This document shows positions 16,432-59,506 of a stretch of DNA of 64,000 nucleotides, piece after piece (the stretch's first letter is position 1; each line of letters begins with the position of its first letter). The notes below the pieces were generated by a model. That model was given only the letters and a program-made list of their open reading frames with translations. It ran no database searches and was not told the origin of the DNA. The position numbers were made by a program, and so were the translations under genes. The stretch comes from Selenomonas ruminantium subsp. ruminantium ATCC 12561 (GTDB lineage Bacteria; Bacillota; Negativicutes; Selenomonadales; Selenomonadaceae), in contig NZ_AUJE01000021.1 in NCBI RefSeq assembly GCF_000424065.1, forward strand, positions 1 to 64,000, read 5' to 3'.

Positions 16432-16521
16432 CTAAGACGCCCGGTGGCTGATTATACTTTTCCTCTGCTTAGACAGGCTTGTCCAACGCGACGGAAAAGC
16501 ATAATCAGCCACCGGGCTTAG
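16432..16521 (+). repeat. Palindromic repeat copy A
   Basis: The outer arms CTAAG...CGGTGGCTGATTAT and ATAATCAGCCACCG...CTTAG are complementary. Inside come TTTTCC/GGAAAA and an apical palindrome GACAGGCTTGTC. It is one of nine nearly full copies in this window; the arms differ between copies, the inside is conserved. A preceding fragment ending CGGCTTAG at 16408-16415 may be the relic of an earlier copy. Confidence 0.9.
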
Positions 16522-16552
16522 TGTTTGCATTGCATTACATTACATCGTTGTA

Positions 16553-16642
16553 CTAAGACGCCGAGTGGGCTGATAATATTTTCCTTTGCCATAGACAGGC
16601 TTGTCAAAAGCTGCGGAAAACATCATCAGCCCACTCGGCTTA
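16553..16642 (+). repeat. Palindromic repeat copy B
   Basis: It has the same architecture as copy A, with arms CCGAGTGGGCTGAT and ATCAGCCCACTCGG and apical GACAGGCTTGTC. The linker before it (TTACATCGTTGTA) recurs before other copies. Confidence 0.9.
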
Positions 16643-16664
16643 ATGCGTAGATTACATAGATGTG

Positions 16665-16757
16665 CTAAAGGCGCCGTGGGGACTGGTAATATTTTCCTTC
16701 GCCATAGACAGGCTTGTCAAAAGCTGCGGAAAAACATCACCAGTCCCCACGGCTTAG
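16665..16757 (+). repeat. Palindromic repeat copy C
   Basis: The arms are CCGTGGGGACTGGT and ACCAGTCCCCACGG, with the same apical region as copy B. A degenerate partial start of another copy (GTGCTAATAAGG) follows at about 16783-16794. Confidence 0.9.
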
Positions 16758-16834
16758 GGCGTATTTTACGAGGTGCTAATAAGGGGGGGCAGGATTGGGG
16801 AATAGCTTTACTTGGTGGTGCTAGGGTAAAAATG
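16758..16834. other. Degenerate repeat debris between copies C and D
   Basis: It contains GTGCTAATAAGG, resembling the left edge of a repeat, then a G-rich run. I see no gene and no intact palindrome here. Confidence 0.4.
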
Positions 16835-42695: not shown

Positions 42696-42786
42696 CTAAG
42701 GCGCCCGAGGGTGTCGGTAGTATTTTCCTTCGCTTAGACAAGCTTGTCAAACGCTGCGGAAAACACCACCGGCACCCTCGGGCTTT
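42696..42786 (+). repeat. Palindromic repeat copy G
   Basis: Arms CCGAGGGTGTCGGT and ACCGGCACCCTCGG (one G-T wobble), inner TTTTCC/GGAAAA, apical GACAAGCTTGTC. It begins 36 bases after the acrB stop. Confidence 0.88.
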
Positions 42787-42814
42787 GGCTTATTATTATA
42801 CATAACATCTATAG

Positions 42815-42905
42815 GAAAAGACGCCCGGTGGCTGATAATACTTTTCCTTTGCTTAGGCAGGCTTGCCAAACGCAGCGGAAAAGCATTATCAGCCACCGGG
42901 CTTTT
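42815..42905 (+). repeat. Palindromic repeat copy H
   Basis: Arms CCGGTGGCTGATAAT and ATTATCAGCCACCGG. The apical palindrome is GGCAGGCTTGCC, in which an A-T pair of other copies has become G-C on both sides. Confidence 0.9.
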
Positions 42906-42927
42906 GTGCGTACATTACATCGTAGTG

Positions 42928-43016
42928 CTAAGGCGCCCGTGAAACTGGTAATATTTTCCTTCGCCATAGACAAGCTTGTCAAAAGCTGCGGAAAACATCA
43001 CCAGTTCCACGGGCTT
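42928..43016 (+). repeat. Palindromic repeat copy I
   Basis: Arms CCCGTGAAACTGGT and ACCAGTTCCACGGG (one mismatch), inner TTTTCC/GGAAAA, apical GACAAGCTTGTC. A degenerate relic may follow at 43028-43063. Confidence 0.88.
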
Positions 43017-45359: not shown

Positions 45360-45521
45360 ATGAAACAGAAAATCTGTGTTTGGCTGCTGACCATGCTGCT
45401 TATGGCTGCAGCTGTTCCGGTCATGGCGGCGGAGAGTGATACGTCCGATAACAGCAATTACCAGCAAAGTGATGATGGCTGTAAGGATGGCGTATGCCCG
45501 TGGCGAAAGGGCGGAAAATAA
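45360..45521 (+). CDS. Small exported Cys-containing peptide, 53 aa
   Basis: The ATG lies 24 bases after the ferredoxin-type gene, with GGGGAGG upstream. Residues 1-24 form a signal peptide ending VMAAES. The mature peptide is only about 29 residues, with two Cys in CKDGVCPWRKGGK. It may be a redox partner or substrate of the upstream thiol proteins. No family is recognised. Confidence 0.65.
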   Translation: MKQKICVWLLTMLLMAAAVPVMAAESDTSDNSNYQQSDDGCKDGVCPWRKGGK

Positions 45522-45542
45522 TACATTTAAGCCGCACAGATT

Positions 45543-45566
45543 TGTTCGGTCAAATTTGACCGGACA
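45543..45566. promoter_or_regulatory. 24-bp palindrome upstream of the phosphatase-like gene
   Basis: Halves TGTTCGGTCAAA and TTTGACCGGACA are complementary in 11 of 12 positions. The same left half and core recur at 55509-55532. It lies 79 bases upstream of the 45645 gene. Confidence 0.8.
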
Positions 45567-45644
45567 GGGAAAATAAGCAATATTTTCTGCCTTCATTGGC
45601 TTATACTAATAATAGATGGTGTAAGTGAAGATGGAGGTAAGGGG

Positions 45645-46238
45645 ATGGAGTATAATCGCATTTTTGTAATTGGGCCGGTAAAAGGTGATTTTGTAAAATT
45701 TATTAACGTTTGGGAGAAAATAGACTTCCAGCCAGAGCGCGATTTGGCCGTGTTTCTTGGCGATTATATCGGCAGCGGTGACGGTAATGTGGATATGATG
45801 CGCTGGGTCATGGAGCATCAAACAGAAAAAAACATGGTCTTCCTGCCCGGTGAGAATGAAGGACTCATGTACCTGGCAGAGGAAAAAGGCGACGAAGAAA
45901 TGAAGTCGCTATGGATGGAAGATAAGGATGGTTACTGGGTAGATGAGGCAATTTGGGCACAAAAAGATTGTAAAGAATTATATGAGGATTGGATGTATTT
46001 CCTGCATTGTCTGGATTTGAAGGATAGCTTCCAATTGTCTCTCGGTAAAACAAAAATCCATTTCGTTTCCCGCGCATGGAATCTGGATGAGGGAGATTTG
46101 GGCAGTGAGCGGCAGATTGTAGATGCCCATCTGCTAGAAGCCAGTGGTGCAGTTATAAATCCCAATTATCCGGATGGGCAAGTGGTTATGTGTGAGTTGC
46201 TTTCGAAGAAATATTATATATCCAAAGATAGTAAGTGA
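45645..46238 (+). CDS. PP2A/ApaH-like phosphoesterase-fold protein without its metal ligands
   Basis: The order of motifs follows PrpA/ApaH-type phosphatases: IFVIG-PVKG-DFVKFINVWEKIDFQPERD, FLGDYIGSGDGNVD, FLPGENEG. In active enzymes these are D-x-H-G, GDYxDRG and GNHE; here D-x-H is P-V-K, D-R is G-S and N-H is E-N. Most metal ligands are gone, so it is probably a binding protein, not an enzyme. The 197-aa length is normal. ATG follows GGAGG. Upstream is the palindrome shared with the 55.5-kb promoter. Confidence 0.7.
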   Translation: MEYNRIFVIGPVKGDFVKFINVWEKIDFQPERDLAVFLGDYIGSGDGNVDMMRWVMEHQTEKNMVFLPGENEGLMYLAEEKGDEEMKSLWMEDKDGYWVDEAIWAQKDCKELYEDWMYFLHCLDLKDSFQLSLGKTKIHFVSRAWNLDEGDLGSERQIVDAHLLEASGAVINPNYPDGQVVMCELLSKKYYISKDSK

Positions 46239-46259
46239 TTAAGTGATAATTGAATACAA

Positions 46260-46298
46260 ACAAGGCTCCTAACATTCTATCACAGGAGCCTTGTTTTC
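46260..46298 (+). terminator. Intrinsic terminator
   Basis: CAAGGCTCCT (46261-46270) pairs with AGGAGCCTTG (46284-46293), followed by TTTTCTT. Confidence 0.9.
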
Positions 46299-46430
46299 TT
46301 ATATTAATATGTATTATCTCAATCAATTTAGGGAATATTTGATTGCATGATAAGCAGGAATTGTAAAAATGATGTCGAATTACTATATATTAGAATTTTA
46401 AGATTATTTAAGAAACTTATAAATGGATAT

Positions 46431-46690
46431 TGAGGGATTACTACTTCTTAGAGTCAAGGGTTATTCCATAGCTGCAAAACTAGGGAGAAACAAAGAGAAA
46501 ATCTCCCGTGAACTTCGCAGAAATACTTCCAAAGGTGAGCGTATATACCTGTAACTGCACAGCAACAATACCAGAAGCGGCGTGTTGCTTGCAGACCTCA
46601 CAAACGATTGGATAATGGCAACATCTTAGAACATGTGCGGCATCGGCTGCTTGAATGGGAAGCTGATACGGTATATTTTGATTATAAAAC
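46431..46690 (+). pseudogene. IS30-family transposase remnant
   Basis: A broken frame reads KGYSIAAKLGRNKEKISRELRRN (stop near 46555), then, in a shifted frame, TAQQQYQKRRVACRPHKRLD and LLEWEADTV. HTH-type S-R-E-L-R-R-N and W-E-A-D-T-V (the first catalytic Asp) are IS30 hallmarks. It is truncated after WEADTV and has at least one frameshift. It marks a former insertion next to the HNH gene. Confidence 0.8.
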
Positions 46691-46763
46691 ACTATATGCT
46701 ATATGAGATTCATTTTTCCAAAGTGTTGCACTTAGTTTGTCTTAGCTTTAGGAGGAGAGAAAA

Positions 46764-47735
46764 ATGAAAAAAGTATACGAGAAACAAGCATTCGAAGAAT
46801 TTACAAAAAAATATAAACGTGGAAAAGGCGAGACGATAAAAGGAAGGAGTTCAACTATTGTTAGAACAGTTTATAAAAATTTAATGCCATGGATTGAATT
46901 TCAAGATAAGGATTTAAAAAAGATTGAAGACTACTTTGGTGATATAAGGAATTGCGTTTATTGTGGAAAAAAAGCTAACACGGTTGATCATATAAATCCT
47001 TTAATTGGGGAGAAGAAGCCTACTGGATGTATAAATGAGCCGAATAATATTCTTCCTTGTTGTAGTGATTGTAATAGCAAGAAGGGAGGGAATGATTGGA
47101 AATGTATGGAATTACCTTCGGAAAATAAAGAAAGGATGGAAAAATTCACTAATGAGAATAAAGTACATGAGTTCCAAATTGAAGGGGTGATTAATCCAAA
47201 AACGAATAAAAAGTGGATTGATGAAATTCAAGAGGATATTGATGAAATTAATCAAAAGTTGTCTATTTTGAATAAAAAATGTGCATTAGCTAAAAGGGAT
47301 TTAATAGCACATTATATAAGGGTCAATAAGCCCGATAGGGAATTTATAGATAAACTTATTCGTGACAACGGATTAGATACTTTATATAGAAAACCGGGCG
47401 ATAAAAAGGGGGAATATGAAAATATAAGAGATATTTCAATTTTGCATATTGTTAGAAAGGAAATAGAAAAATTTAAAGGTATTATGCGTAACATTGATGA
47501 TATAAAAAATTTGTTAAAAAAATATAGAATAGCCAATCCGAAAAATGATGATTTCCTTAAAGATTATATTAGTGATAATGATGTATTAGATAATTATTAT
47601 TCTATTTATAAGTCTAATATAAAGTTATATATTCTAAAAAAAGGATGGAATATTAGCGAGAATAAAAAAAATGAAGTAATTAAACAGTTAAAATTGATAT
47701 CATGGAAAGAAGATGTGTTAAAGAGTATTACTTAG
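46764..47735 (+). CDS. HNH endonuclease, 323 aa, AT-rich
   Basis: The HNH core is clear: CVYCGKKANTVDHINPLI, then NEPNNILPCCSDCNSKKGGND, with two CxxC pairs for a structural zinc and the catalytic His. The rest (150 residues after it) is Lys/Glu-rich helical sequence with no recognised domain. The DNA is far richer in A and T than its neighbours, a sign of recent acquisition. GGAGGAG precedes the ATG. It may be a restriction-like or defence nuclease; which one is unknown. Confidence 0.85.
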   Translation: MKKVYEKQAFEEFTKKYKRGKGETIKGRSSTIVRTVYKNLMPWIEFQDKDLKKIEDYFGDIRNCVYCGKKANTVDHINPLIGEKKPTGCINEPNNILPCCSDCNSKKGGNDWKCMELPSENKERMEKFTNENKVHEFQIEGVINPKTNKKWIDEIQEDIDEINQKLSILNKKCALAKRDLIAHYIRVNKPDREFIDKLIRDNGLDTLYRKPGDKKGEYENIRDISILHIVRKEIEKFKGIMRNIDDIKNLLKKYRIANPKNDDFLKDYISDNDVLDNYYSIYKSNIKLYILKKGWNISENKKNEVIKQLKLISWKEDVLKSIT

Positions 47736-47760
47736 TGTAAAATATAATGAGGAGCGTAAT

Positions 47761-49497
47761 ATGGCAAGATTTTACCCTGAAAATCCCGGTAATTTTAATG
47801 GTAGTGAAGGCGAAGAACAGGTCTATAATGCCCTAAAGACGCTGGATGACCGCTATGTGGTGTTTCATTCTTATCGCTGGGTAGGGGATGGCAATCGCTC
47901 ACAGGCTGATGGTGAGGCTGACTTCATTATCTTTGACCCGAAATATGGTGTTCTGGTCATTGAGGTGAAAGATGGCATTATCAGCTATGAGGGAGGGCGT
48001 TGGTATAGCACAACGCGTGATACCCACGAGAAAAATGAAATCGAACCATTTAGGCAGGCGGTCAGCAGCAAGTATAGAATATTGGATGAATTCAACAAAC
48101 ATATGCGCTTTGCGCCCTGGGTATTTCATGCTGTGTGGTTTACGAATTTTGACAAGTCACAAGTCCATAACTATCCGCTGGAAGCACCGCCAGAGATTAT
48201 CTTGGACGCGGATGCCCTTAGCTGGCCGGAAGATGCCATCAGAAATGTATTCGAATTTTGGTATGATACTACTGCAGCCCGCAAATATCCCAGTGTGTTG
48301 TCCGATGAAGACATCACGCGCTGTGTCGGCATTTTGCAGCCAGTGGTACGGGCAGCAGAGACGGTCAAAACATCCGGTGTGAGCTGTGAAAGCACGTCCG
48401 TTCGCCTGACCAATCAACAATATGCCTTGCTGCATTTCCTGCAGGAGCAACGTATCGCGGCTATATATGGACCGGCGGGCACTGGCAAGACCATTTTGGC
48501 TGTGGAGAAAGCGAAGATGCTGGCGAATGATGAGGAGGATGTATTGCTCCTTTGTTTCAATGAGTTTCTTTGGGAGCGGCTCAAGGAAATGGAACTGAAT
48601 CAGCATATTGCGCTGCATAATGAGCGTACACTGGCCGAGGAGCTGATGCCGGAGAAGAGGATTCCTTTTGACAAGATTATTAACCGCTTTGAAGCGTATT
48701 TTGCCGAGGAATTCGCGGATGAAAGCTGGCCATACAAGAATGTCATCATTGATGAAGCACAGGATTTCCCCAGTGATCTCTTGGCGCATATTCATCAGTT
48801 GGTTTTAGCTCGTGGTGGCATCCTATATGTATTCTATGACCGGAAGCAGTCGGTCATCACCCGCAAGATGCCGGATGGCACGTTAAAGCCAAATGCCAGC
48901 GTATGGATTGACCAGAACATGGATTGTCGTCTCGTGTTGTATCGTAACTGCCGCAACACTGCAGAAATCAGCAAGTCGCTCAGTAATATCGGGGAAATCA
49001 AGACCCAAGGCTATGTCAATGAAAATCATGGAGATAAACCAATAGTGCAATTTTGCACGAATCAGGAGGATATCGTTGCTGCTGTGAAATCCTTTATCAA
49101 TCAAAGCTTTGGAGAGGGATTCTCCCTTACGGATATGGTTATTCTCACCACCCATATGCTCAAGAGCAGTATGCTCACGAATTTTGCGGCAATCGGCGAC
49201 TGGCAGATTTCCAACAAGCCGGAACTGGGGAAAGTATGGTTTACCACGGTGCGCCGTTTCAAGGGGGTGGAGGCAAAAGCCGTGCTCATTCTGGATGTGA
49301 AAACATCCGAACTTACACAGGAAATAACCCGCAATCTGCTGTATGTGGGCAGTTCGCGGGCTACTCTGAAGCTGAAATTGCTGATTCTTGATGATGTACG
49401 CCGCAAGGACTATCCTGTGGCATTGGCAGCCTTGGGAGATAAAATCGAACAGCGTAAGGATATCGCAGATTGGCTGGGGATGGATATCAAGAAGTGA
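47761..49497 (+). CDS. NERD nuclease-domain UvrD-like (SF1) helicase
   Basis: Residues about 8-125 form a NERD domain, a nuclease-related PD-(D/E)XK fold, seen in SEGEEQVYNAL, GEADFIIFDPKYGVLVIEVKDG. Residues 215 to the end are a superfamily 1 ATPase: Walker A GPAGTGKTILAVEKAKM, Walker B NVIIDEAQDF, and C-terminal RRFKGVEAKAVLILD. 578 aa. It probably processes foreign or damaged DNA. The end overlaps, on the opposite strand, the last codons of the DUF2779 gene by 11 bases. Only about 25 bases separate it from the HNH gene. Confidence 0.88.
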   Translation: MARFYPENPGNFNGSEGEEQVYNALKTLDDRYVVFHSYRWVGDGNRSQADGEADFIIFDPKYGVLVIEVKDGIISYEGGRWYSTTRDTHEKNEIEPFRQAVSSKYRILDEFNKHMRFAPWVFHAVWFTNFDKSQVHNYPLEAPPEIILDADALSWPEDAIRNVFEFWYDTTAARKYPSVLSDEDITRCVGILQPVVRAAETVKTSGVSCESTSVRLTNQQYALLHFLQEQRIAAIYGPAGTGKTILAVEKAKMLANDEEDVLLLCFNEFLWERLKEMELNQHIALHNERTLAEELMPEKRIPFDKIINRFEAYFAEEFADESWPYKNVIIDEAQDFPSDLLAHIHQLVLARGGILYVFYDRKQSVITRKMPDGTLKPNASVWIDQNMDCRLVLYRNCRNTAEISKSLSNIGEIKTQGYVNENHGDKPIVQFCTNQEDIVAAVKSFINQSFGEGFSLTDMVILTTHMLKSSMLTNFAAIGDWQISNKPELGKVWFTTVRRFKGVEAKAVLILDVKTSELTQEITRNLLYVGSSRATLKLKLLILDDVRRKDYPVALAALGDKIEQRKDIADWLGMDIKK

Positions 49498-50998
49498 ATG
49501 CTTGTAGTTTCTCAAATATCTTGACCATTGCTAAGGTGTCAAGTTCGCAGTATTTCAGCATTTGCTGGCGTTTGATGGCTGCATCGGTGCAATCGTCTTT
49601 GGCTGTCTCCAAATAAACCATAGGAGCTTCGCCGCCATTATGTACACCGGCAAGCGCGTGATAATCTAACTCCTTGTCATTGGGAAAGAGGGCGGGCAAT
49701 ACATCCTTGATACTATAGCTGCCTTTTAAAACTTTGCTGTAGTATAATCTATCCCTGAAGGGAGCCATCATATCGACAAAATGCGTCAACCGTGCTAATA
49801 GCTGTGTACGCAGCTGCGGATATTCATTGGCTAAGTCTTGAATGCAGCTCCTTTCCACAGATGCATTGTAGGCGACAATACATGCTCCTGCAGGAATATC
49901 CTGACATAATCGTTGGGCGATTTCCTCGCGGGAGTCTTTGCGTGGGTCCCCTAGATACTCCTTATGGATTAACTTGCCGCCAGCTGACTCCAATATATGC
50001 AGCGAATATTGGAAAACCTGTCTTTGATATGGCCTTGTGCCTTTATATTGGGGAATGGCGGGATTGATGGTTTCAAAGTCTAAGAAATATAAGGGATATT
50101 GGATTTGAGTCAAAAAGCTACGAATGGCATTTTTATCAATATACGGCTCTGTTTCATGCAGCTCGTGGTCGACTTGTTGTTTATAATCCTCCTTCTTGAT
50201 ATGGGGCAATACATCCTCAAAGGAATAAATTCCGTCGTTATAGAATTTTACTTTGGCAGGTATGTTCATTCCACGAATGTCAAATATGTTCGGTTTGGGC
50301 AGACCTCGTGAACAGTAGGGGAAGAATGGGCAATCGTATGGATGCAGGCTGTCTTTTGCATCTGACCCGAAGCATTGCTTTCCCATGTTTCGGGTCGGTT
50401 CATTATCACCGGCAGTATACATGTAAGCGGCGATATCGGCAAGGTTTTTGACGGTATCACGTTGTAAATCACGGATTTCATCGGTCAGGTCAACAATCTT
50501 GAATAGCTGCTGGATATCCAATTCATCGCTGCGCACATATTGATTGTCTATAATGACCAGGCAGGCTTTCTGGACATTCAGCCCTGCTTTGGTCAGCACA
50601 TAATATTGGAAGGCGGCATCATGCTTATAGATAGGCTTTACTTTGGTACTGCTCTTGACCTCATAGATTTCTACATTTCCCGCGCCCAAATTACGCAGAA
50701 TGTCTACGCTGCAAAACAGTTTGTCAACGAAGAAGGAGGCCTCTGTGATTACCGAGGTGCCTTTCTTCATCTCTATCTGCGTATCCTGTGCCATCTTGTC
50801 ACGGTCATCATCACGGACAATCTCATGGAAAGCGCCAAACAGCCCCATAGCCAAATCGCCGACCTCGCTGCCCTGTTTTAAAATGGCTTCATTGTCGTAG
50901 GATTCATCATATTCGTCTGGTTTGTATTTTCTTAGCCAGACGCGTTTGGGGCATTGCAGGGCTTCACAGTATCTGGTTTTTGACAAGTCAACTGCCAT
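49487..50998 (-). CDS. DUF2779-family RecB-like nuclease, 503 aa
   Basis: The N-terminal part is a RecB-like PD-(D/E)XK domain with a Cys-based metal cluster: YCEALQCPKRVWLRK, then EIYEVKSSTKVK (catalytic E-x-K), and CPFFPYC. The C-terminal DUF2779 has YPLYFLDFETINPAIP, an RNase H/exonuclease-like fold with the acidic D-F-E. ATG 50998 follows GGAGG. Together these suggest a nuclease with two active sites. It is downstream of the WYL gene on the same strand and convergent with the NERD-helicase. Confidence 0.85.
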   Translation of the reverse strand: MAVDLSKTRYCEALQCPKRVWLRKYKPDEYDESYDNEAILKQGSEVGDLAMGLFGAFHEIVRDDDRDKMAQDTQIEMKKGTSVITEASFFVDKLFCSVDILRNLGAGNVEIYEVKSSTKVKPIYKHDAAFQYYVLTKAGLNVQKACLVIIDNQYVRSDELDIQQLFKIVDLTDEIRDLQRDTVKNLADIAAYMYTAGDNEPTRNMGKQCFGSDAKDSLHPYDCPFFPYCSRGLPKPNIFDIRGMNIPAKVKFYNDGIYSFEDVLPHIKKEDYKQQVDHELHETEPYIDKNAIRSFLTQIQYPLYFLDFETINPAIPQYKGTRPYQRQVFQYSLHILESAGGKLIHKEYLGDPRKDSREEIAQRLCQDIPAGACIVAYNASVERSCIQDLANEYPQLRTQLLARLTHFVDMMAPFRDRLYYSKVLKGSYSIKDVLPALFPNDKELDYHALAGVHNGGEAPMVYLETAKDDCTDAAIKRQQMLKYCELDTLAMVKIFEKLQAFTS

Positions 50999-51015
50999 TA
51001 TAAACACCTCCGTTT

Positions 51016-52347
51016 TTAGCTCGGTATCCTCAGCATATCGTCGAACATTTCTACTGTTCGCTCTTTCTGTTTATCTGCTTTCAATTTTTCGGGGTCAACA
51101 GGTTCAAGGGGGTGCTGCTCATAATCGATGATTGTATTCAAGGCAGTTTGCATCCTTTTTTTCAGTTCGGCTCGAACAGAGGCCGGTTCTACGACAATTA
51201 CATTATCCCCCTGCAGCATAAGCCATTTATATAACCCTTCATTTTCCTGCACGGTAACATAGGCATTAAGCGCAGTTTCGCCGTCAGGGAAGGTCCGGTT
51301 AGTGGGATAAACATGCAGCATGTTGCTGTCCAAATTGAATTGTGCCAAAAACTGCCCTTGGAAACTCTCGCGAAAGAAAAAGCGCATATCTATCGGGGCT
51401 GTGTCATTATGGAACATAAAGATATTTTCCCGCATATAGCGGTCCAAAGAGAACGTTACCAACGCAGAACGGTTACTGATAAGTTGCTTTTCTTCCTCGG
51501 TTGACGCTTTTTTCTTGTACTCATTTACGGCTTTGTATTCAGGAATCGTTCGTTTGAGAGAATACCGCTTATATTCCTCCATCTCACTGATGGAGAGGGC
51601 GGCGTCATAGGTCAGTTGAAACTGGTCTGCAATCAGGGACACCTTGAAATGGCTTAGGTGATGTTTGTCCTTTTTCGTGTCATGTGCCGCACAATGGGCA
51701 ATGAGGTAGCATTCATCCATGTTCCAGACGAGGTAGTAGGGGGAAACAACATACTTCTTGGTTTTTCCGGTTGCAGAGTCCAGACGTTTTTGCATATTTG
51801 CCATATCACGGTCTTGATGCGTATAGTAGGTGAATTTAAGCTTTTTCTGCTTCCAAATGGCATCCAAGATGGCACGGATAATGGGGAGAGTGTGTCTTGT
51901 AGGTTTACGGCGGGGAGCTCTGCGTTCCATTTGCTTTATCATGATGTCCAGATAATCTTCCCCAAGGCTGTCTGTACGGTGCAGGAATTTCTTTATTATG
52001 GCATTCGTTTCAGTAGTGGAAATGGTGACAGAACGATAGAGCGCCTGCGCAATGAGGGAAAATTCGGCAGCTTCAAAATCGAATTTGTCACAATAATAGC
52101 CCTCTTTTTTGTTTTTGCTGGTAGCAATGTGGTAGAAGCCGCTGGTATTCAATGCATCTATATATCGCCCTACGCTTGATTTACTTAGCTGGGCTGGCGG
52201 TTCATCAGGAAAGTGTTCCTGCCATGCAGAGGCCACATCCTGAATAAGCTCATCTTTAGTCCGGGTATGTTCGAGATTGGTATGCTTTAGGGCATCGAGT
52301 AAAAGTAAAAACAGCACATAGGATTTTCCTTTTATTTGTTTTTCCAT
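51016..52347 (-). CDS. WYL-domain transcriptional regulator, 443 aa
   Basis: Residues 1 to about 90 hold a winged helix (KGKSYVLFLLLLDALKHT to SSVGRYIDALNTSGFY). The WYL domain spans about 140-320 (IWKQKKLKFTYYTHQDRD, KYVVSPYYLVWNMDECYLIAH), with a further C-terminal domain. WYL proteins are often repressors of phage-defence genes and sense a nucleic-acid ligand. ATG 52347 is used since the ribosome site AGGAGG touches the other ATG. The DUF2779 gene lies 17 bases downstream. Confidence 0.88.
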   Translation of the reverse strand: MEKQIKGKSYVLFLLLLDALKHTNLEHTRTKDELIQDVASAWQEHFPDEPPAQLSKSSVGRYIDALNTSGFYHIATSKNKKEGYYCDKFDFEAAEFSLIAQALYRSVTISTTETNAIIKKFLHRTDSLGEDYLDIMIKQMERRAPRRKPTRHTLPIIRAILDAIWKQKKLKFTYYTHQDRDMANMQKRLDSATGKTKKYVVSPYYLVWNMDECYLIAHCAAHDTKKDKHHLSHFKVSLIADQFQLTYDAALSISEMEEYKRYSLKRTIPEYKAVNEYKKKASTEEEKQLISNRSALVTFSLDRYMRENIFMFHNDTAPIDMRFFFRESFQGQFLAQFNLDSNMLHVYPTNRTFPDGETALNAYVTVQENEGLYKWLMLQGDNVIVVEPASVRAELKKRMQTALNTIIDYEQHPLEPVDPEKLKADKQKERTVEMFDDMLRIPS

Positions 52348-52388
52348 GTTCATACCTCCTGTGGTTTTGCAGTACGTTAGCTTTGATG

Positions 52389-52402
52389 TGTCATATTTGA
52401 CA
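52389..52402. promoter_or_regulatory. Palindrome between the WYL gene and the TPR gene
   Basis: TGTCATATTTGACA has complementary arms with one mismatch. Its core GTCA.ATTTGAC matches the centre of the larger palindromes at 45543 and 55509. It sits in the divergent promoter region, where a WYL autoregulation site would be expected. Confidence 0.55.
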
Positions 52403-52488
52403 GATGATTCCAATTTCCTGCCGCATATCGGTATATTCGTGTTAATATGATTTTAGAGGTCAGGTTAGTTTTTGGGGAGGATACGATT

Positions 52489-53211
52489 ATGACGGAAGAA
52501 AAATATCAAGAGCTGGTAAAACTGGTGGAAGAACAAGGCACGTTAACCCCACCCAAAGAGTTATATGGCCATTATGGCGACTGGAATGCAATGGTCACAT
52601 TGGCGCGGCTGTTGACCAGTTTTGGTTTGGATTATCCGCAAGAGGCGGTTTTACTTTTCCGTGAAGCCGTAGCGGTACCCTTTGCAGATTTTCCTCAAGA
52701 TGTGTCTGAAGATGAATATGTTGATTTAATGGCCTGGGCATTGCGTGACCTTAGCAGTTTAGAACGTAAGCTTGGCGAATATGAATTGTCTCTTGCCCAT
52801 ATTGAGAGGGCCATAGAAATGGCGAATTCCAGAAAGGTTCGTTATCAATGGACACTTCGCGGCAATTTGGTCTATCACAAACTGCTTACTTTGTGTGCGC
52901 TGGGAAGAACAGCAGAAGCTGATGCGATAGCAGAATCCATGGTAAAACCACAAAAGCAGGATAGCTGCGCTTATTATGGTTATCTGTTCCAGGCAAGACA
53001 GTCTGCAGCGCAGGAAAATCCAGCAGCTGTAAGGGATTTTATGGTAAAGGCCGTAAATTCCATGGATAACGCTGATGTGGTCTTACAATGCCGCACTGAA
53101 TTAGAGCAGGTTGACATTACCAAGTTGGATGCGCAGAGTGTGTTTGACCGTATGAACCGATTATTACCAGATGTTTATCATGAAGTTGTCTGGGAAAATG
53201 AAATAAATTGA
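52489..53211 (+). CDS. TPR-like helical protein, 240 aa
   Basis: ATG 52489 follows GGGGAGG. The sequence is helical and includes TPR-like pairs: FREAVAVPFADF, LSSLERKLGEYELSLAHIERAIEMA, LLTLCALGRTAEADAIAESMV. It has no signal peptide or catalytic motif. TPR proteins usually scaffold other proteins. It is divergent from the WYL gene and lies upstream of, but convergent with, the AAA+ ATPase gene. Confidence 0.7.
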   Translation: MTEEKYQELVKLVEEQGTLTPPKELYGHYGDWNAMVTLARLLTSFGLDYPQEAVLLFREAVAVPFADFPQDVSEDEYVDLMAWALRDLSSLERKLGEYELSLAHIERAIEMANSRKVRYQWTLRGNLVYHKLLTLCALGRTAEADAIAESMVKPQKQDSCAYYGYLFQARQSAAQENPAAVRDFMVKAVNSMDNADVVLQCRTELEQVDITKLDAQSVFDRMNRLLPDVYHEVVWENEIN

Positions 53212-53230
53212 GAGAGATTACTCTTGTTTA

Positions 53231-53272
53231 TGCTTGCGGGATATTGCGCATTGGCGGCAATATCCCGCAGGC
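53231..53272. terminator. Hairpin between convergent TPR and AAA+ genes
   Basis: TGCTTGCGGGATATTGC (53231-53247) pairs with GCAATATCCCGCAGGCA (53256-53272) in 16 of 17 positions. There is no long T-run on either side, so its strength as a terminator is uncertain. Confidence 0.65.
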
Positions 53273-53278
53273 ATATAT

Positions 53279-55372
53279 TTATACGGAAAAGCCTATGGGG
53301 GTGGAATGGTCATATTCCCAGAATGTTTCTTGAATATCACGGAAGTCTTCGGCACGCAGCAGCATCAGGTCTTCTTTACCGGCTTCGCCATTAGCCGCTT
53401 CGGCATAGATACGGTTGGCCTGATTCATGATGGCTTTCTGCAGCAAGTTGCGCACATAGCGGCCGTTGCCAAAATCCTTCATTCTTACAGCGTTGCAGAA
53501 TACCTCATGACAAGCGGCTTTGGCATCTTCATCCAGTTCATAGCACTTGTCCTCGGCCATTTTCTGCATGATTTCATCTAACTGGTTGGGGGTATAGTCC
53601 TCAAAGGTCAGTTGGAAACCAATTCGGCTGCGGAGGCCTTCATTTCTCTTGAGGAACTTAATCATCTTGTCCGGATAGCCAGCAAAGATGACAATGGTGT
53701 CGTCACGATGGTTTTCCATCTGCTGGACAATGGTGTTGATGGCTTCATCGCCGAAACTGCCATCACGGCCATCGGTCAGGGCATAGGCTTCATCGATGAA
53801 TAAGATGCCGCCTTTGGCCTCCTTGAATTTTGCCTCAACCTGTTTGGCCGTCCAGCCAACATATTTACCCACTAAGTCCTGTCTGCCACATTCCACGAAG
53901 ATGTCACCTTGCAGTATTTGTTCATCACTCAGGATACGAGCCAGCAGTCTTGCCACGGTTGTCTTGGCTGAACCCGGATTTCCCAGGAAGGCCATATGGG
54001 GGGCGTTTCCCCCGGCGGGGAGTCCGACTTTCTTGCGTTGGCTTTGCATTTTGGAAAAGGCAATGATGCTGTTGACCAAGGTTTTTATGTTGTCCAAGCC
54101 AATCAAGCGATTCAGGTTTTCATAGGCAGAACTGCGGCTGCGAATGTCTGACTCTACTTTTATAACCTCTGCCGTTCTGTAGGATTGATAGATTTGGTCC
54201 GAGAGCATTGACTTGCAATAATTGTTGTAGATATCATGTACCTCTGACATTCGGTAAAGGTCTTTGGTCAACAGTTTGCGAAAATCTTTGGCATTCCATG
54301 CGGGAAATTTATGCTCCGCCTGTAAGGTTTTGGCAAACAGCATCGAATCCTCTATCGTCCCCAGGCCTTCGCGGATATCAATGAAATCTACTGTGCCCGC
54401 CAACTGCTCAATGACATTTTTGGACAGCGTTGCCTGCTGGCCAATATCAATAAGCATAAATAAGGTGTTTTGGTGGTGCTGACGAATCAGCCGTTCAAAA
54501 TAATCGACAACAGCATGATGGGCATTAGCATATTGGCCGCTGTCTTCCGACTCTCCATTCAGGAATAAGACAACCACACCGCCATTGGCACTTTCGAAGA
54601 TATTCGTTAACGCCGTATCGTTGAAACAACGCTTGGTTACATGGTCAATAATATTTTTGCGGAAACTGCTTAGTCTGCCGTTTTTATACAACGCCTGCAG
54701 CAAAAGTTCCATCATAGAATTTGCCGATGGCAGGCTGGCTGCATGAATGTGATAGTGTACGGGATGGCCCCAGAAGCCTGTCTTGTTATTCTTGTCGTAA
54801 ATACGCTCAATTTCCTCCCGCAAAGAATCATCGGCCAGCATACATTTTAATTTCGTCAGACAGCTGCGGTGGGATAACGGTGTCTGGCGGCAGATTTCTT
54901 CCCGATACTGGTAGTAACAACCGTTATTATTACGGGTATGGTCGGTTATATCCAGACATTGCAGGATATTTCGGCCATATCTGGTATTGATGAAATCAGC
55001 GTATGCACCACGCTCTGTTAAATGAACAAATTCGGCTTGTGATATTTCTTGCAGTTTCTCAATCTGCAGTGATTTTAGGCCAAATTGTCCTCTTATAAGC
55101 TTGATGTGGGATTCGATAAAATCAAGCAGTTCTGCCGCCTGCAGCTGGCAGGTCTTGCGGGATACTAAGGCTATTTTCATATATTTTGCATTGGCATCAT
55201 ATACGAATACGCTAAGGGGGTCTGTAATTGTCTGCAACCCTGCCAAGGCACTGATTTTGCTGATATTCTCAGCCCAATCCCTAACGAGGTCAGGGTCTGT
55301 ACCATCACCGACCTTGCTTAAAACGGACTTTGTGCACAGCGTATAGGCGAGAGAGGCTTGATAATAAATCAT
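53279..55372 (-). CDS. CbxX/CfxQ-type AAA+ ATPase with large N-terminal domain, 697 aa
   Basis: The last 275 residues are a CbxX-type AAA+ module: NLNRLIGLDNIKTLVNSIIAF, Walker A LGNPGSAKTTVARLLARIL, Walker B GGILFIDEAYALTDGRDGSFG, sensor/Arg region GYPDKMIKFLKRNEGLRSR. In place of the usual lysine-flanking Gly, the loop is G-S-A-K-T. The first 400 residues (with YQASLAYTLCTKSVLSKVGD) are of unknown fold. Related AAA+ proteins remodel partners, for example in type VII secretion and rubisco activation. It is divergent from the PcfJ-MotA operon. Confidence 0.85.
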   Translation of the reverse strand: MIYYQASLAYTLCTKSVLSKVGDGTDPDLVRDWAENISKISALAGLQTITDPLSVFVYDANAKYMKIALVSRKTCQLQAAELLDFIESHIKLIRGQFGLKSLQIEKLQEISQAEFVHLTERGAYADFINTRYGRNILQCLDITDHTRNNNGCYYQYREEICRQTPLSHRSCLTKLKCMLADDSLREEIERIYDKNNKTGFWGHPVHYHIHAASLPSANSMMELLLQALYKNGRLSSFRKNIIDHVTKRCFNDTALTNIFESANGGVVVLFLNGESEDSGQYANAHHAVVDYFERLIRQHHQNTLFMLIDIGQQATLSKNVIEQLAGTVDFIDIREGLGTIEDSMLFAKTLQAEHKFPAWNAKDFRKLLTKDLYRMSEVHDIYNNYCKSMLSDQIYQSYRTAEVIKVESDIRSRSSAYENLNRLIGLDNIKTLVNSIIAFSKMQSQRKKVGLPAGGNAPHMAFLGNPGSAKTTVARLLARILSDEQILQGDIFVECGRQDLVGKYVGWTAKQVEAKFKEAKGGILFIDEAYALTDGRDGSFGDEAINTIVQQMENHRDDTIVIFAGYPDKMIKFLKRNEGLRSRIGFQLTFEDYTPNQLDEIMQKMAEDKCYELDEDAKAACHEVFCNAVRMKDFGNGRYVRNLLQKAIMNQANRIYAEAANGEAGKEDLMLLRAEDFRDIQETFWEYDHSTPIGFSV

Positions 55373-55508
55373 GGAAATATTCCTCCATTCCTCTATTCAG
55401 CTCTGATTTAACAGGTGACAGCCTTTGGCTGCTCAAGCACTGTCAAATCTCTTTCGTGTTATCTTTAGTATAACCGGTAGAGTGCTTCCATAGTTGCGCA
55501 AATCGCTC

Positions 55509-55532
55509 TGTTCGGTCAAATTTGACTGAACA
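55509..55532. promoter_or_regulatory. 24-bp palindrome upstream of the PcfJ-MotA-like operon
   Basis: Halves TGTTCGGTCAAA and TTTGACTGAACA are complementary in 11 of 12 positions. It lies in the 260-bp gap between the AAA+ ATPase and the operon and could control both. 55373-55632 holds no gene besides this. Confidence 0.8.
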
Positions 55533-55632
55533 CGAAAATTATATCCCCCCATATTCTTCCTTGCGGTTAGACTGTAGGTAACAAACAAAACAGTCTAACC
55601 TTATTGTCGTGCGGTAAAAAGGGGAGGTTACT

Positions 55633-57201
55633 ATGCTGCCAAGAGCTTTCATTGTTGATTGGAATAAAAAAGATTGGCAAGAAACATTTGCCAATCATCT
55701 AATCAACGACCCCATTGAATCATTACCAGAATTGTTGCCACCACAATGTGGACAATATTCTACATCCCGGCCATCTGAACGCGGCTGGATAAATCTTCGC
55801 TGGCGGGTGGCTTGTCATAATGAAGTGGTTTTCATTGCCGTAGACCGTGGACGTTTTATCGCCCCATATGCCCGTGAGCCACACAACCAACGAAAATCCT
55901 ACATATTAAAGGTAGTGGATTATCGGGTAAATACATTATCCCTGAGCTTGACGCAGACATTAGCCGTACCTGAGAAAAACTGCCGCAATATTCCCCAATG
56001 TGTGGCCAGGGCAGCCGTGGATTTTTTACAGGAAGAAGCTGAGAAACGATACGGTTATTCGTTTGTTCTTCCGGCCAGCATACAAAACGGTTATTTCAAT
56101 GATGGACGAACACTGATAGATGCCGCTCTGCGATACCCGCATGATATCAATCTCTGGTATGTCCAGAATTTTTTTGACAAAGGTAGACAACATCAAGAAA
56201 TTTTTCAACCGGGAGGTTTTGATACTTTTCCGCTGCTCTGTGAGCAATTTTCCATCGAGCCAACAACTGCCTTGCGTGAAGCATACAATAATCACCCTTA
56301 CGCCATCATCATGACCAGGGTTCTGGAATCCTTAGGAATCAAGGAGCCAAAACTTATCGAACCATTTTTGAAGCTGAACAAATGGAATGACAAACCCATC
56401 TATGAAGGGTTGTGCGATTGGGGGATCTACACCTATCATTGCTTGTTTAGTCATATCTTCCACCAAAGTTGGTTCACGGATGACATGGGCATCAGCCATA
56501 TGTTGCAGCAAAATAATTATTTCTATCGCCAAAGTTTTCCCTACATTTTTTTCTGCCAGTTATTGCGACAGGAGATTGGTGAGATTAAACTTGCTCAACG
56601 TTTATTGGCGCAGCAAATGACAGATGGGGATATATTCAACAAATTTGCTGCAGTGCTATTCTATAATTTCCACATCATTCCCATTCCATGGAGAAGGAAA
56701 ATCATATCTTCACCATTGACGGAAGAATTATATGCTGAGCTGCTGGCCGTTATTGACACAGAAAAGGTACAACGCTGTACGTTCCATTATCCCCCAGAAA
56801 TAAAGGCTTGCGAGGGTATGGTAGATGGTTTTGAATTCCGCTTGATAAGCAATAGTGATGAATTTACACGCATGCAGCGAGCAATTACCTCCTGTGGTAA
56901 TCCGAAATCACCATTGTTAGATGGCGATGGTGTTGTCCGGCTGGGCATTTACAAAAACGGCGAAATTGGAGGCTGCTTAACCTTACAGGGCATATTTAAG
57001 ATTTATTGCAACAACAGTGGCGGTATCTACGAACATACTCTTTTAACTGCTGGTCTGCGAATAGCGGTATTGCATTGGCTCAAAGCTACAGGGCTATATA
57101 AGAATTATGGTCCGTATTTTTCTACAGATTATGCGTATCTGTCCGAAGATGTCCAACTTCTGCCATTGTCATCGGAACAGGAAGGGAGCGAATTACAATG
57201 A
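55633..57201 (+). CDS. PcfJ-like domain protein, 522 aa (first gene of the operon)
   Basis: ATG 55633 follows GGGGAGG. Residues 1 to about 380 are unassigned (PRAFIVDWNKKDWQETFANHL, with WRVACHNEVVFIAVDRGRF). The C-terminal 130 residues, ACEGMVDGFEFRLISNSDEF through ITSCGN and RLGIYKNGEIGGCLTLQGIF, resemble the PcfJ domain of conjugation/phage-type proteins, and the same module is present in the third gene of this operon. No transmembrane segments. The stop overlaps the next start by 4 bases. The function is unknown. Confidence 0.6.
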   Translation: MLPRAFIVDWNKKDWQETFANHLINDPIESLPELLPPQCGQYSTSRPSERGWINLRWRVACHNEVVFIAVDRGRFIAPYAREPHNQRKSYILKVVDYRVNTLSLSLTQTLAVPEKNCRNIPQCVARAAVDFLQEEAEKRYGYSFVLPASIQNGYFNDGRTLIDAALRYPHDINLWYVQNFFDKGRQHQEIFQPGGFDTFPLLCEQFSIEPTTALREAYNNHPYAIIMTRVLESLGIKEPKLIEPFLKLNKWNDKPIYEGLCDWGIYTYHCLFSHIFHQSWFTDDMGISHMLQQNNYFYRQSFPYIFFCQLLRQEIGEIKLAQRLLAQQMTDGDIFNKFAAVLFYNFHIIPIPWRRKIISSPLTEELYAELLAVIDTEKVQRCTFHYPPEIKACEGMVDGFEFRLISNSDEFTRMQRAITSCGNPKSPLLDGDGVVRLGIYKNGEIGGCLTLQGIFKIYCNNSGGIYEHTLLTAGLRIAVLHWLKATGLYKNYGPYFSTDYAYLSEDVQLLPLSSEQEGSELQ

Positions 57202-58085
57202 CGAACAACACGCACTTTTCTTTATTTTATTTGCTGATTGGATTGCTATTGTTTATCAATGGTGAATTGAGATTAGTATATTCGGACTCACCACTGGATT
57301 CTTTATCATTATTTGCTGGCTGTCTATTCTGTTGCGCCAGTACGGGGCTTTTTACGACCGTTAAGCATAATATGACGGTATCTTCTTTTTGGCAGGGGGC
57401 AGAGGTGGAACGTGAATCATTATTTCTGACCCGTCTATTTGTAGAACTGGCCTTTATCGCTCGCAATCAGGGGATTTTGGCTTTGGAAGAAAATCCGCAC
57501 GATAAAAATTACCGTAATCCTTTTTTCCACCTGGGGAAAGATATGGTAATGGATGGCTATGACCCTGACTATATCCGCGAAGTGATGGAGAACATCAATA
57601 AGACCTTAGCTTATCATCTGACTGCTAAAATTACCTGCCTGAAGCACTTGGGGCTATGCCTGCTTAGCAGTGGTCTTATCGCTCTGCTTGCAGGGACACT
57701 TTCCCTGTATCTGCGAACATATAGCGGGGAAAACATCGCTGTGATTGTTCCGGTGGTGCTTATGGTTTTGGTCAGTGCCTTTTGTCTCATGGGCCTGTTT
57801 TGCCTGTTCTTCCTTCCCCTGTACCTGAAAGACCAGCAGCATCGTCAGTTGTCCTTGCAAAAACAAATTATGGCAGGCATATTCTCCTTGCAGGCGGGGG
57901 ATTCCTATAATGCGATTATGCGCTTGCAGCTATCCTTCCTGTCCCGCGAAGATATGCGCTCTCTGCTTGAGCAGCCTATGCTGGAAATGGACGATGAAGA
58001 AAACTTATCGTCCAGCCAGAAAAAAGAATATGAGGTTATACAACAAACCTTGAGAAAAGAAATAACCAACTGGCATATGGTCTGA
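57198..58085 (+). CDS. MotA-like membrane protein without a MotB partner, 295 aa
   Basis: Four hydrophobic segments lie at about residues 9-27, 35-55, 147-170 and 180-205, the MotA/TolQ layout. The cytoplasmic loop reads ELAFIARNQGILALEENPHD, FFHLGKDMVMDGYDPDYIRE, matching the MotA signature ('ARxEGxLALE', 'L.VDG.dpe.iRe'), and the C-terminal part has AGIFSLQAGDSYNAIMRLQL, like MotA 'GILAIQ.GENP'. The usual G-T-V-x-G-L of TM3 is absent. No MotB, FliM or flagellar genes are nearby. The 4-base overlap with both flanks shows one operon. Confidence 0.75.
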   Translation: MTNNTHFSLFYLLIGLLLFINGELRLVYSDSPLDSLSLFAGCLFCCASTGLFTTVKHNMTVSSFWQGAEVERESLFLTRLFVELAFIARNQGILALEENPHDKNYRNPFFHLGKDMVMDGYDPDYIREVMENINKTLAYHLTAKITCLKHLGLCLLSSGLIALLAGTLSLYLRTYSGENIAVIVPVVLMVLVSAFCLMGLFCLFFLPLYLKDQQHRQLSLQKQIMAGIFSLQAGDSYNAIMRLQLSFLSREDMRSLLEQPMLEMDDEENLSSSQKKEYEVIQQTLRKEITNWHMV

Positions 58086-58102
58086 GAACGGAGGTGATAC
58101 AC

Positions 58103-59506
58103 ATGGGCAAAACCGTTTTTGGCTATAATTACCCCCGGAACACCTGGAAGATCATTACGCACGCGCATCTAATCGATGACAATATTGCTGCCGTACCAAT
58201 TATTATCCTTGTGAGATATCGTCATCAGTTCATTGGTAAAGAAACGGTTAGTGTATGGTGTCCGCGGCATCGGGATTACGAGGAAATCGGTGAATTTACA
58301 GAAGATGGTCTGATAACGGGCGCAGGCTGCCAATTAACCGGGTTGTTAGCTGAGGTAGAAAAGAATATTTATCAGACCTCTTGGCATTACGGGGAGGATT
58401 CAATCGTAACTCCTGTTCGTTATACGGTAACGGAGACTGAACATGGTGCTTACCATATCACTCAGGAAAATGTACATATTTTGCTTAGCTGGCAAAAACG
58501 GCATGATTCCACATCTTGGGGAGCAACGGGTTTTTTACTTGTTCCGAACATCATGTTCATTGATAAAAGCTGCATGCTGGCCTCGCCAAAAGCTAATGTC
58601 CCCGAAGCAATACAAAAGCATATTTTCCCTAATATGCCAGTACGAAAAACTGTAAAAAAGAAAAATACTCCTCCAATTGATGACGAGCAGGCTATACGGG
58701 CAGAGGCAGGATATTACATTCCCATCACTACACCAGCATTAGACAGAAAACAATGGGAATGTAACGTCAACGGCTATAACTTTCGACAAATTAGATATAT
58801 GAACATGTTTCAAAACATCAGTCGTCATATGGAAGGGCGTTGGTACACGCAAAAAGAGCTGACGGACAAAATTCTTTTTGCTGTCGAACGCAATGGCCGT
58901 TATGTTGCGCTGCTGGTATTAAGTGGCAATATACTGGAATCAAGCATCATAAATACTTATAATGACCATATACTGACCGCCAAAACCAGAGTCGCTATGC
59001 TGGCGTGGATGCAGCACAATCGAATTGAGGAAAAATACAGCAGCCCCAAAGAGGACTGCCGGAGTCCCCTGAACCAGCCGCTGCATATTAACGCTGTAAC
59101 CCAATACGCTCTCTGGGAGGAAATGACCTTGCAGCAAATGCTCTCCCTCCCCGCAGAGGAAGTTGCCAATGCGCCTTTATACTATTTGAATCTCAAGCTA
59201 AAAATCAATACCATCATGCTGTTGCGTTACCAATCCCCTGATTTTCAGGATGATGAGATTGCCTTGCTGGAAGAACGCTATCCGTATATCAGGCACCTGT
59301 TTGTCGCTGCTGATAATAACAATCCTGAAGCTCAATATGTGCTCCATCTGATGTACAGCGATGCAATATTATTCAATTTCCGTGATTATCGGCGTGCTGA
59401 TAGCTGGTATCAGCGTGCGGTCAGCAATGGCTGGCTGGATTTAGCTCCTGAAAAAGATGATATCAAGCTTACCGGCTTTGACTTCCCGCTAAATAATCGT
59501 ATTTGA
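58103..59506 (+). CDS. PcfJ-like protein with Sel1/TPR-like tail, 467 aa
   Basis: ATG 58103 follows GGAGG. Its middle (about residues 210-300: ECNVNGYNFRQIRYMNMFQ, QKELTDKILFAVERNGRYVALLVLSGNI) aligns by eye with the C-terminal PcfJ-like region of the first gene. The C-terminus has a Sel1/TPR-like unit (AQYVLHLMYSDAILFNFRDY, RRADSWYQRAVSNGW). The first 150 residues are unassigned. No membrane helices. The gene ends inside the convergent lysR gene by 38 bases. Confidence 0.6.
   Translation: MGKTVFGYNYPRNTWKIITHAHLIDDNIAAVPIIILVRYRHQFIGKETVSVWCPRHRDYEEIGEFTEDGLITGAGCQLTGLLAEVEKNIYQTSWHYGEDSIVTPVRYTVTETEHGAYHITQENVHILLSWQKRHDSTSWGATGFLLVPNIMFIDKSCMLASPKANVPEAIQKHIFPNMPVRKTVKKKNTPPIDDEQAIRAEAGYYIPITTPALDRKQWECNVNGYNFRQIRYMNMFQNISRHMEGRWYTQKELTDKILFAVERNGRYVALLVLSGNILESSIINTYNDHILTAKTRVAMLAWMQHNRIEEKYSSPKEDCRSPLNQPLHINAVTQYALWEEMTLQQMLSLPAEEVANAPLYYLNLKLKINTIMLLRYQSPDFQDDEIALLEERYPYIRHLFVAADNNNPEAQYVLHLMYSDAILFNFRDYRRADSWYQRAVSNGWLDLAPEKDDIKLTGFDFPLNNRI

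What the first reader, a model, noticed from the sequence alone, without database searches (positions are those of the whole stretch)
45543..55532. A shared 24-bp palindrome links distant promoters in one putative regulon
TGTTCGGTCAAA/TTTGAC.GAACA-type palindromes occur at 45543-45566 and 55509-55532, and a shorter related palindrome (GTCATATTTGAC) lies between the WYL and TPR genes at 52389. These precede the phosphatase-like gene, the PcfJ-MotA-like operon and the WYL gene itself. A WYL autoregulator controlling its island is the simplest reading.
Basis: partly seen in the sequence, partly recalled or inferred. Interest (0 to 1): 0.7.

Follow-up and report, generated by a model that had tools for sequence, protein, structure and literature searches.

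The report
WYL activator operators that seam islands
Two matching 24-letter mirror-image DNA signals really do mark the promoters of one defence-like gene island in a rumen Selenomonas; comparison with relatives suggests they are docking sites for the island's own WYL regulator, placed so that it would switch genes on, and that island pieces are gained or lost exactly at these signals.

Summary
TGTTCGGTCAAATTTGAC(C/T)G(G/A)ACA occurs at exactly the stated places. The consensus TRYTCNGTCAAATTTGACNGARYA occurs at only five places in the 3.39-Mb genome (3 mismatches or fewer): two here, three in a paralogous island on another contig with the same gene set (WYL, AAA, DUF2779, metallophosphoesterase, NERD-helicase). 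Related Selenomonadaceae WYL islands, including one on S. ruminantium plasmid pSRC1, carry the motif upstream of the same genes, and once upstream of a solitary WYL gene. These promoters have an A+T block near -42, no -35 box and often an extended -10. That is class-I activator geometry (centre near -60), so activation is more likely than the repression known for BrxR/CapW; the WYL model's best PDB matches are PafBC and DriD. Second, close relatives gain or lose segments with junctions exactly inside the palindrome (two cases). WYL binding is inferred. Autoregulation in this window is unproven: the 52384 site fits the TPR promoter better than the WYL promoter.

The parts
45543..45566 (.). operator 1, TGTTCGGTCAAATTTGACCGGACA; left seam of the 9.94-kb segment absent in relative G154
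45602..45607 (+). -10 box TATACT of the metallophosphoesterase gene, offset 47 from operator 1 centre (offset 0 = first base past the centre)
45645..46238 (+). calcineurin-like metallophosphoesterase (PF00149)
   Evidence: paralogue 44% identical in the C3 island
47761..49497 (+). NERD-domain SF1 helicase (PADLOC RTasNERD-Hel, 7e-59)
   Evidence: paralogue 67% identical
49487..51007 (-). DUF2779 protein (weak Cas4-like and RNase H-like matches)
   Evidence: paralogue 58% identical
51016..52347 (-). WYL-WCX regulator with N-terminal winged helix-turn-helix; proposed binder of the operators
52384..52407 (.). operator 3 (weaker), TGATGTGTCATATTTGACAGATGA, between WYL and TPR genes
52443..52448 (+). 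-10 box TAATAT (preceded by TGT) of the TPR gene, offset 47 from operator 3 centre
52489..53211 (+). TPR protein (start at 52489 fits the -10 and the ribosome-binding site better than 52447)
   Evidence: 44% identical to the TPR protein of the pSRC1 island
53279..55372 (-). AAA ATPase, C-terminal SpoVK/CbbX/EccA-like AAA plus AAA_lid_6, N-terminal domain unknown
   Evidence: paralogue 65% identical
55467..55472 (-). -10 box TATACT of the AAA gene, offset 48 from operator 2 centre
55509..55532 (.). operator 2, TGTTCGGTCAAATTTGACTGAACA, serving two divergent promoters; right seam of the segment absent in G154
55568..55573 (+). -10 box TAGACT of the PcfJ-like operon, offset 47 from operator 2 centre
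55633..57201 (+). first PcfJ-like gene (no Pfam match itself; a distant homologue in L055 matches PF14284 PcfJ, 6e-9)
57198..58085 (+). membrane protein with partial MotA similarity (NCBIfam 7.6e-13, far below the model cut-off)
58094..59506 (+). third gene of the operon; weak similarity to the first PcfJ-like gene
45567..55508 (.). segment present here, absent in G154 with the junction exactly at a single palindrome

Best explanation
The palindromes are operators of the island's own WYL-domain protein (51016-52347). A WYL dimer is proposed to bind the 24-bp site TGYTCTGTCAAATTTGACAGARCA, centred about 60 bp upstream of the transcription start, and to recruit RNA polymerase, probably through the alpha C-terminal domain on the A+T block at about -42, to promoters that have a good (often extended) -10 but no -35. 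One site serves one or two promoters (metallophosphoesterase; AAA and PcfJ operon; TPR). The signal is probably nucleic acid bound by the WYL domain, as in DriD and PafBC, so the island would be switched on by DNA damage or phage attack. Because each cassette begins at the same 24-bp sequence, crossover between operators also adds or removes whole cassettes while each gene keeps its promoter. Shown: the sites, their restriction to these islands, the fixed spacing, and junctions exactly at the sites. Inferred: WYL as the binder, activation, the alpha-CTD contact, the signal, and defence as the output.
For: Genome-wide restriction to two paralogous islands. The same motif lies at the same genes in relatives, plus a solitary WYL gene with a site at its promoter in L052. 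A -10 box starts at offset 47/48 from the centre in 19 of 27 hand-chosen gene-facing directions (maximum 8 for any 2-bp position in 2000 shuffles) and in 20 of 36 unselected directions versus 3 of 46 at chance palindromes in IMG/VR contigs and 1 of 32 at 3-mismatch sites (Fisher p = 4e-9). 12 of 16 dissimilar promoter groups have it. A/T is 94-100% at -31/-30 from the -10 start, the -35 zone is no better than shuffled, and TGn is present in 11 of 18. The WYL model matches the activators PafBC and DriD before BrxR and CapW, with three helices between the wHTH and WYL domains, as in DriD, whose 3-helix bundle contacts alpha-CTD (PMC12340889). Operator-exact junctions: window versus G154 and L094 versus L095.
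Against: No binding or expression data. The link to WYL rests on co-occurrence. G155 has a site but no WYL protein was found (86% complete genome). G185, whose WYL is the closest relative (56%), shows no recognisable site in its 11-kb, partly masked contig. The WYL gene of this window has no class-I promoter at its nearby site. The -10 search used an E. coli-type matrix. Homologous promoters are not fully independent. The WYL structural model has only moderate confidence (pLDDT 68), and its wHTH-to-WYL helices are the least certain part.
Confidence: 0.72

Rival explanations
1. The palindromes are WYL operators used for repression, as with BrxR and CapW: the WYL protein keeps the island silent and releases DNA when it senses nucleic acid.
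For: BrxR, the best characterised WYL regulator next to defence genes, binds inverted repeats and represses (PMC9122601). In this window the 52384 site lies within about 50 bp of the WYL start, where a bound protein could block the WYL promoter.
Against: The sites lie upstream of the -35 position at a fixed distance from the -10, and the promoters lack a -35. BrxR sites lie downstream of the -10 (PMC9122601). The WYL model is closest to the activators.
Confidence: 0.13
2. The sites are operators of another regulator (an unlinked host factor) that controls these islands.
For: G155 has a site without a detected WYL protein. Only co-occurrence links WYL to the sites.
Against: Genomes with sites at 2 mismatches or fewer carry this WYL subfamily, except incomplete G155. 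WYL is the only recognisable DNA-binding regulator among the island proteins scanned. L052 has a WYL gene plus site without the other island genes nearby on its contig.
Confidence: 0.1
3. The palindromes are recombination or insertion sites (attachment sites or target duplications) flanking a mobile 10-kb segment, and their promoter position is incidental.
For: They bound a segment absent in G154, with an exact junction. A second exact junction exists in L094/L095.
Against: No integrase or intact transposase was seen in the segment (only an IS remnant and an HNH gene). The sites recur at promoters of genes in diverged islands, with fixed -10 spacing. Deletion between short direct repeats explains the junctions without a dedicated enzyme.
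Confidence: 0.04
4. Chance palindromes or terminator hairpins.
For: Several single core matches elsewhere in the genome look like terminators (for example L014, L015, C20:39388).
Against: Island sites are restricted to two islands, conserved across genomes, and placed at promoters with fixed spacing.
Confidence: 0.01

Closest known systems
DriD (Caulobacter crescentus WYL activator)
   Same: wHTH - helices - WYL - WCX architecture; pseudo-palindromic site; fixed distance to the -10; promoters with poor -35; fold match; alpha-CTD contact is known for DriD (PMC12340889).
   Different: The DriD site (ATACGAC-N7-GTCGTAT) overlaps the -35 and its DNA-binding domains sandwich sigma4. Here the site is centred near -60 and the sequence is unrelated. 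DriD regulates several repair and cell-division genes; here the sites are confined to two gene islands.
PafBC (mycobacterial DNA-damage activator)
   Same: WYL activator that works with promoters lacking a normal -35; top fold match.
   Different: PafBC is a PafB-PafC heterodimer that inserts between sigma domain 4 and promoter DNA (PMC11804915). Here the site is a 24-bp palindrome upstream of the -35 position and a single WYL gene is present per island.
SiwR (Mycolicibacterium smegmatis)
   Same: Local WYL activator of neighbouring genes binding a palindrome (PMC10693628).
   Different: The SiwR palindrome is 19 bp and lies between -35 and -10; here it is 24 bp, near -60, with several operons under it.
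BrxR and CapW (WYL regulators of defence systems)
   Same: WYL regulator inside a defence-like island with inverted-repeat operators at more than one operon (BrxR).
   Different: BrxR represses from 11-bp repeats with a 5-bp spacer downstream of the -10 (PMC9122601); CapW as a repressor is from general knowledge. Geometry and motif differ, and fold similarity is weaker.

Membership tests
WYL-domain transcription factors | wHTH plus WYL (PF13280) and WCX domains | tested here: met
   PF13280 1.5e-9 and PF25583 1.5e-5, both above cut-off; model matches PafBC, DriD, BrxR, CapW
WYL-domain transcription factors | binds a (pseudo)palindromic DNA site | not testable with these tools
   conserved palindrome associated with the subfamily; binding not measured
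DriD/PafBC-type WYL activators | site at a fixed distance from a -10, promoters without a good -35 | tested here: met
DriD/PafBC-type WYL activators | site overlapping the -35 region | tested here: not met
   site centre 47-48 bp upstream of the -10, i.e. near -60; so it is not filed as a DriD- or PafBC-type member, only as working like a WYL activator
DriD/PafBC-type WYL activators | activated by ssDNA in the WYL pocket | not testable with these tools
   needs biochemistry; the WYL motif here reads CYL (alignment, my reading)
BrxR/CapW-type WYL repressors | operator overlapping or downstream of the promoter | tested here: not met
   sites lie upstream of the -35 position for the promoters found; only the WYL side of 52384 could fit
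Class I activated promoter (CRP-type) | activator site centred near -61.5, at fixed spacing from the -10 | tested here: met
   offset 47/48 (a few 49), centre about -60; transcription starts are inferred from the -10, not mapped
Class I activated promoter (CRP-type) | alpha-CTD contact with the activator and adjacent DNA | tested here: inconclusive
   only the A+T block at about -42
Mobile element flanked by target duplications | element-encoded recombinase or transposase | tested here: inconclusive
   no intact recombinase seen among the genes scanned; exact junctions exist

The most novel reading that the evidence does not exclude
A Selenomonadaceae WYL family activates a multi-operon defence-like island from class-I (-60) operators, a geometry not reported for the WYL activators read here, and the shared operators double as recombination seams, so that cassettes can be swapped or lost between strains while every cassette keeps its own half-site and promoter and stays in the regulon.
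Probability: 0.45. Interest if true: 0.66.

Novelty: new variant of a known kind. Interest (0 to 1): 0.55.

Why it matters
WYL regulators sit beside very many bacterial defence systems, but only a few operator sets are known and the characterised defence-linked ones mostly repress. A conserved operator with fixed spacing predicts an activated, probably damage- or phage-induced regulon and gives a motif that can be tested directly. The exact junctions at operators suggest a simple way for islands to shuffle cassettes without losing control of them.

Tried and rejected
Terminator or chance origin: rejected by island restriction, cross-genome conservation and -10 spacing. Phage-borne regulon: 23 IMG/VR contigs have the 18-bp core pattern, but none encodes an island protein; they served as a control. 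Distant WYL relatives (about 28-35% identity, loci L057-L063, also next to metallophosphoesterase-like genes) show no related palindrome, and only one unrelated palindrome with the spacing turned up. PDB search by sequence with the WYL alignment found nothing; only the fold search did. The order-level search returned the same 189 genomes as the family. Plasmid search with the PcfJ-like protein: none.

Full report
OBSERVATION. The shorter one is TGTCATATTTGACA at 52389-52402; as a 24-mer (52384-52407) it has 9 of 12 symmetric pairs. In the 3,386,012-bp genome, the tight consensus finds these two sites and one 3-mismatch hairpin-like site.

A SECOND ISLAND. The other core matches led to contig C3, 148-161 kb. 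There lies a paralogous island: WYL (46% identical), AAA (65%), DUF2779 (58%), metallophosphoesterase (44%) and NERD-helicase (67%), plus McrBC. It has three palindromes of slightly different flank, NGCTCTGTCAAATTTGACAGAGCN. One lies between the divergent metallophosphoesterase and WYL genes, one upstream of AAA, and one at 148.4 kb. The broader consensus finds exactly five sites at up to 3 mismatches in the whole genome: two in the window and these three.

RELATIVES. WYL homologues of this subfamily were found only in Selenomonadaceae. One is on the complete plasmid pSRC1 of S. ruminantium TAM6421, beside TPR, DUF2779, metallophosphoesterase, AAA and NERD genes. Loci L052, L053, L055 and L056 carry the motif, and L054 a degenerate form, upstream of AAA, metallophosphoesterase, PcfJ-like or WYL genes. 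L052 has it upstream of a WYL gene that has no other island gene nearby on its contig. Across 189 family genomes, every site with 2 mismatches or fewer that I opened lies next to island-type genes. Pooled half-sites give TGYTCTGTCAAA, with positions 8-10 and 12 nearly invariant.

PROMOTER GEOMETRY. Lining up sequence outward from each palindrome centre shows a -10 box starting at offset 47 or 48. Examples in the window: TATACT for metallophosphoesterase, TATACT for AAA, TAGACT for PcfJ and TAATAT for TPR; in the C3 island: TATAAT for AAA and metallophosphoesterase. For 27 hand-chosen gene-facing directions, 19 have it, against at most 8 at any 2-bp position in 2000 shuffles. Without any choice of direction it is 20 of 36, against 3 of 46 for chance palindromes in viral contigs and 1 of 32 for 3-mismatch sites (Fisher p = 4e-9). 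Counting similar promoters once, 12 of 16 groups have it. Eighteen aligned promoters also share an A+T block about 30 bp upstream of the -10 start, no -35 signal above shuffled, and TGn before the -10 in 11. A site centred near -60 with these features is the layout of class I activation; this step is established promoter knowledge applied to the counts, and no transcription start has been mapped.

THE REGULATOR. The WYL model (pLDDT 68, so moderate) matches PafBC and DriD best, then BrxR and CapW. DriD contacts RNA polymerase alpha-CTD through a three-helix bundle between its DNA-binding and WYL domains (PMC12340889); the model here also has three helices there, at low confidence. DriD's own site overlaps the -35, SiwR's lies between -35 and -10 (PMC10693628), PafBC inserts at sigma domain 4 (PMC11804915), and BrxR represses from downstream of the -10 (PMC9122601). 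The geometry here differs from all four.

OPERATORS AS SEAMS. In relative G154 the same chromosomal site has one perfect palindrome, TGTTCGGTCAAATTTGACCGAACA. Its left flank aligns with the window up to 45566 and its right flank from 55509 on, so the 9.94 kb between the window's two palindromes is missing and the junction is the palindrome. G152 and G153 lack the whole island, joining about 45521 to 59495. A second case: L094 (G154) has two palindromes 1.28 kb apart, while L095 (G155) has one hybrid, TGCTCTGTCAAATTTGACAGACCT, whose two halves and flanks come from the two L094 sites. Deletion between short direct repeats explains both; insertion is not excluded. With two cases this is suggestive, not established.

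WHAT REMAINS OPEN. No binding or expression data exist here. G155 has a site without a detected WYL gene, and G185 has the closest WYL without a recognisable site in its short masked contig. In this window the WYL gene itself is not placed for class-I activation by the nearby site. The island's biochemical function is unknown; NERD-helicase, McrBC, and in one relative Hsp70, vWA and double-GTPase neighbours suggest a conflict or defence role.

Noticed in passing
G000:C23:46419-46442 (locus L004:1495-1518): A fourth exact core, GCCCTAGTCAAATTTGACTGGTCA, with TG-N-TATCAT starting at offset 48 from its centre. A gene upstream of it (L019:497-2677) looks DUF262/GmrSD-like by eye. Possible extra regulon member or chance.
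   Followed up: partly
window 46420-46690: Short remnant resembling an IS30-type transposase inside the island (read by eye, not searched).
   Followed up: no
window 16433-16769 and 42735-43002: Dispersed short arrays of related direct repeats with 113-122 bp spacing (TAGACAGGCTTGTCAAAAGCTGCGGAAAA-like), also near the same locus in relative G153.
   Followed up: partly
L055:10856-17036: Downstream of the WYL gene of Selenomonas sp. AE3005: double-GTPase, Hsp70, and Hsp70-vWA genes, of the kind found in predicted NTP-dependent conflict systems.
   Followed up: partly
L057, L058, L060, L061, L063: Distant WYL homologues (28-33% identical) repeatedly sit next to one or two metallophosphoesterase-like genes but lack this palindrome.
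   Followed up: partly
window 46764-47735: HNH endonuclease gene within the segment, with weak PtuB/PDC-M01B matches; no operator of its own was found.
   Followed up: no
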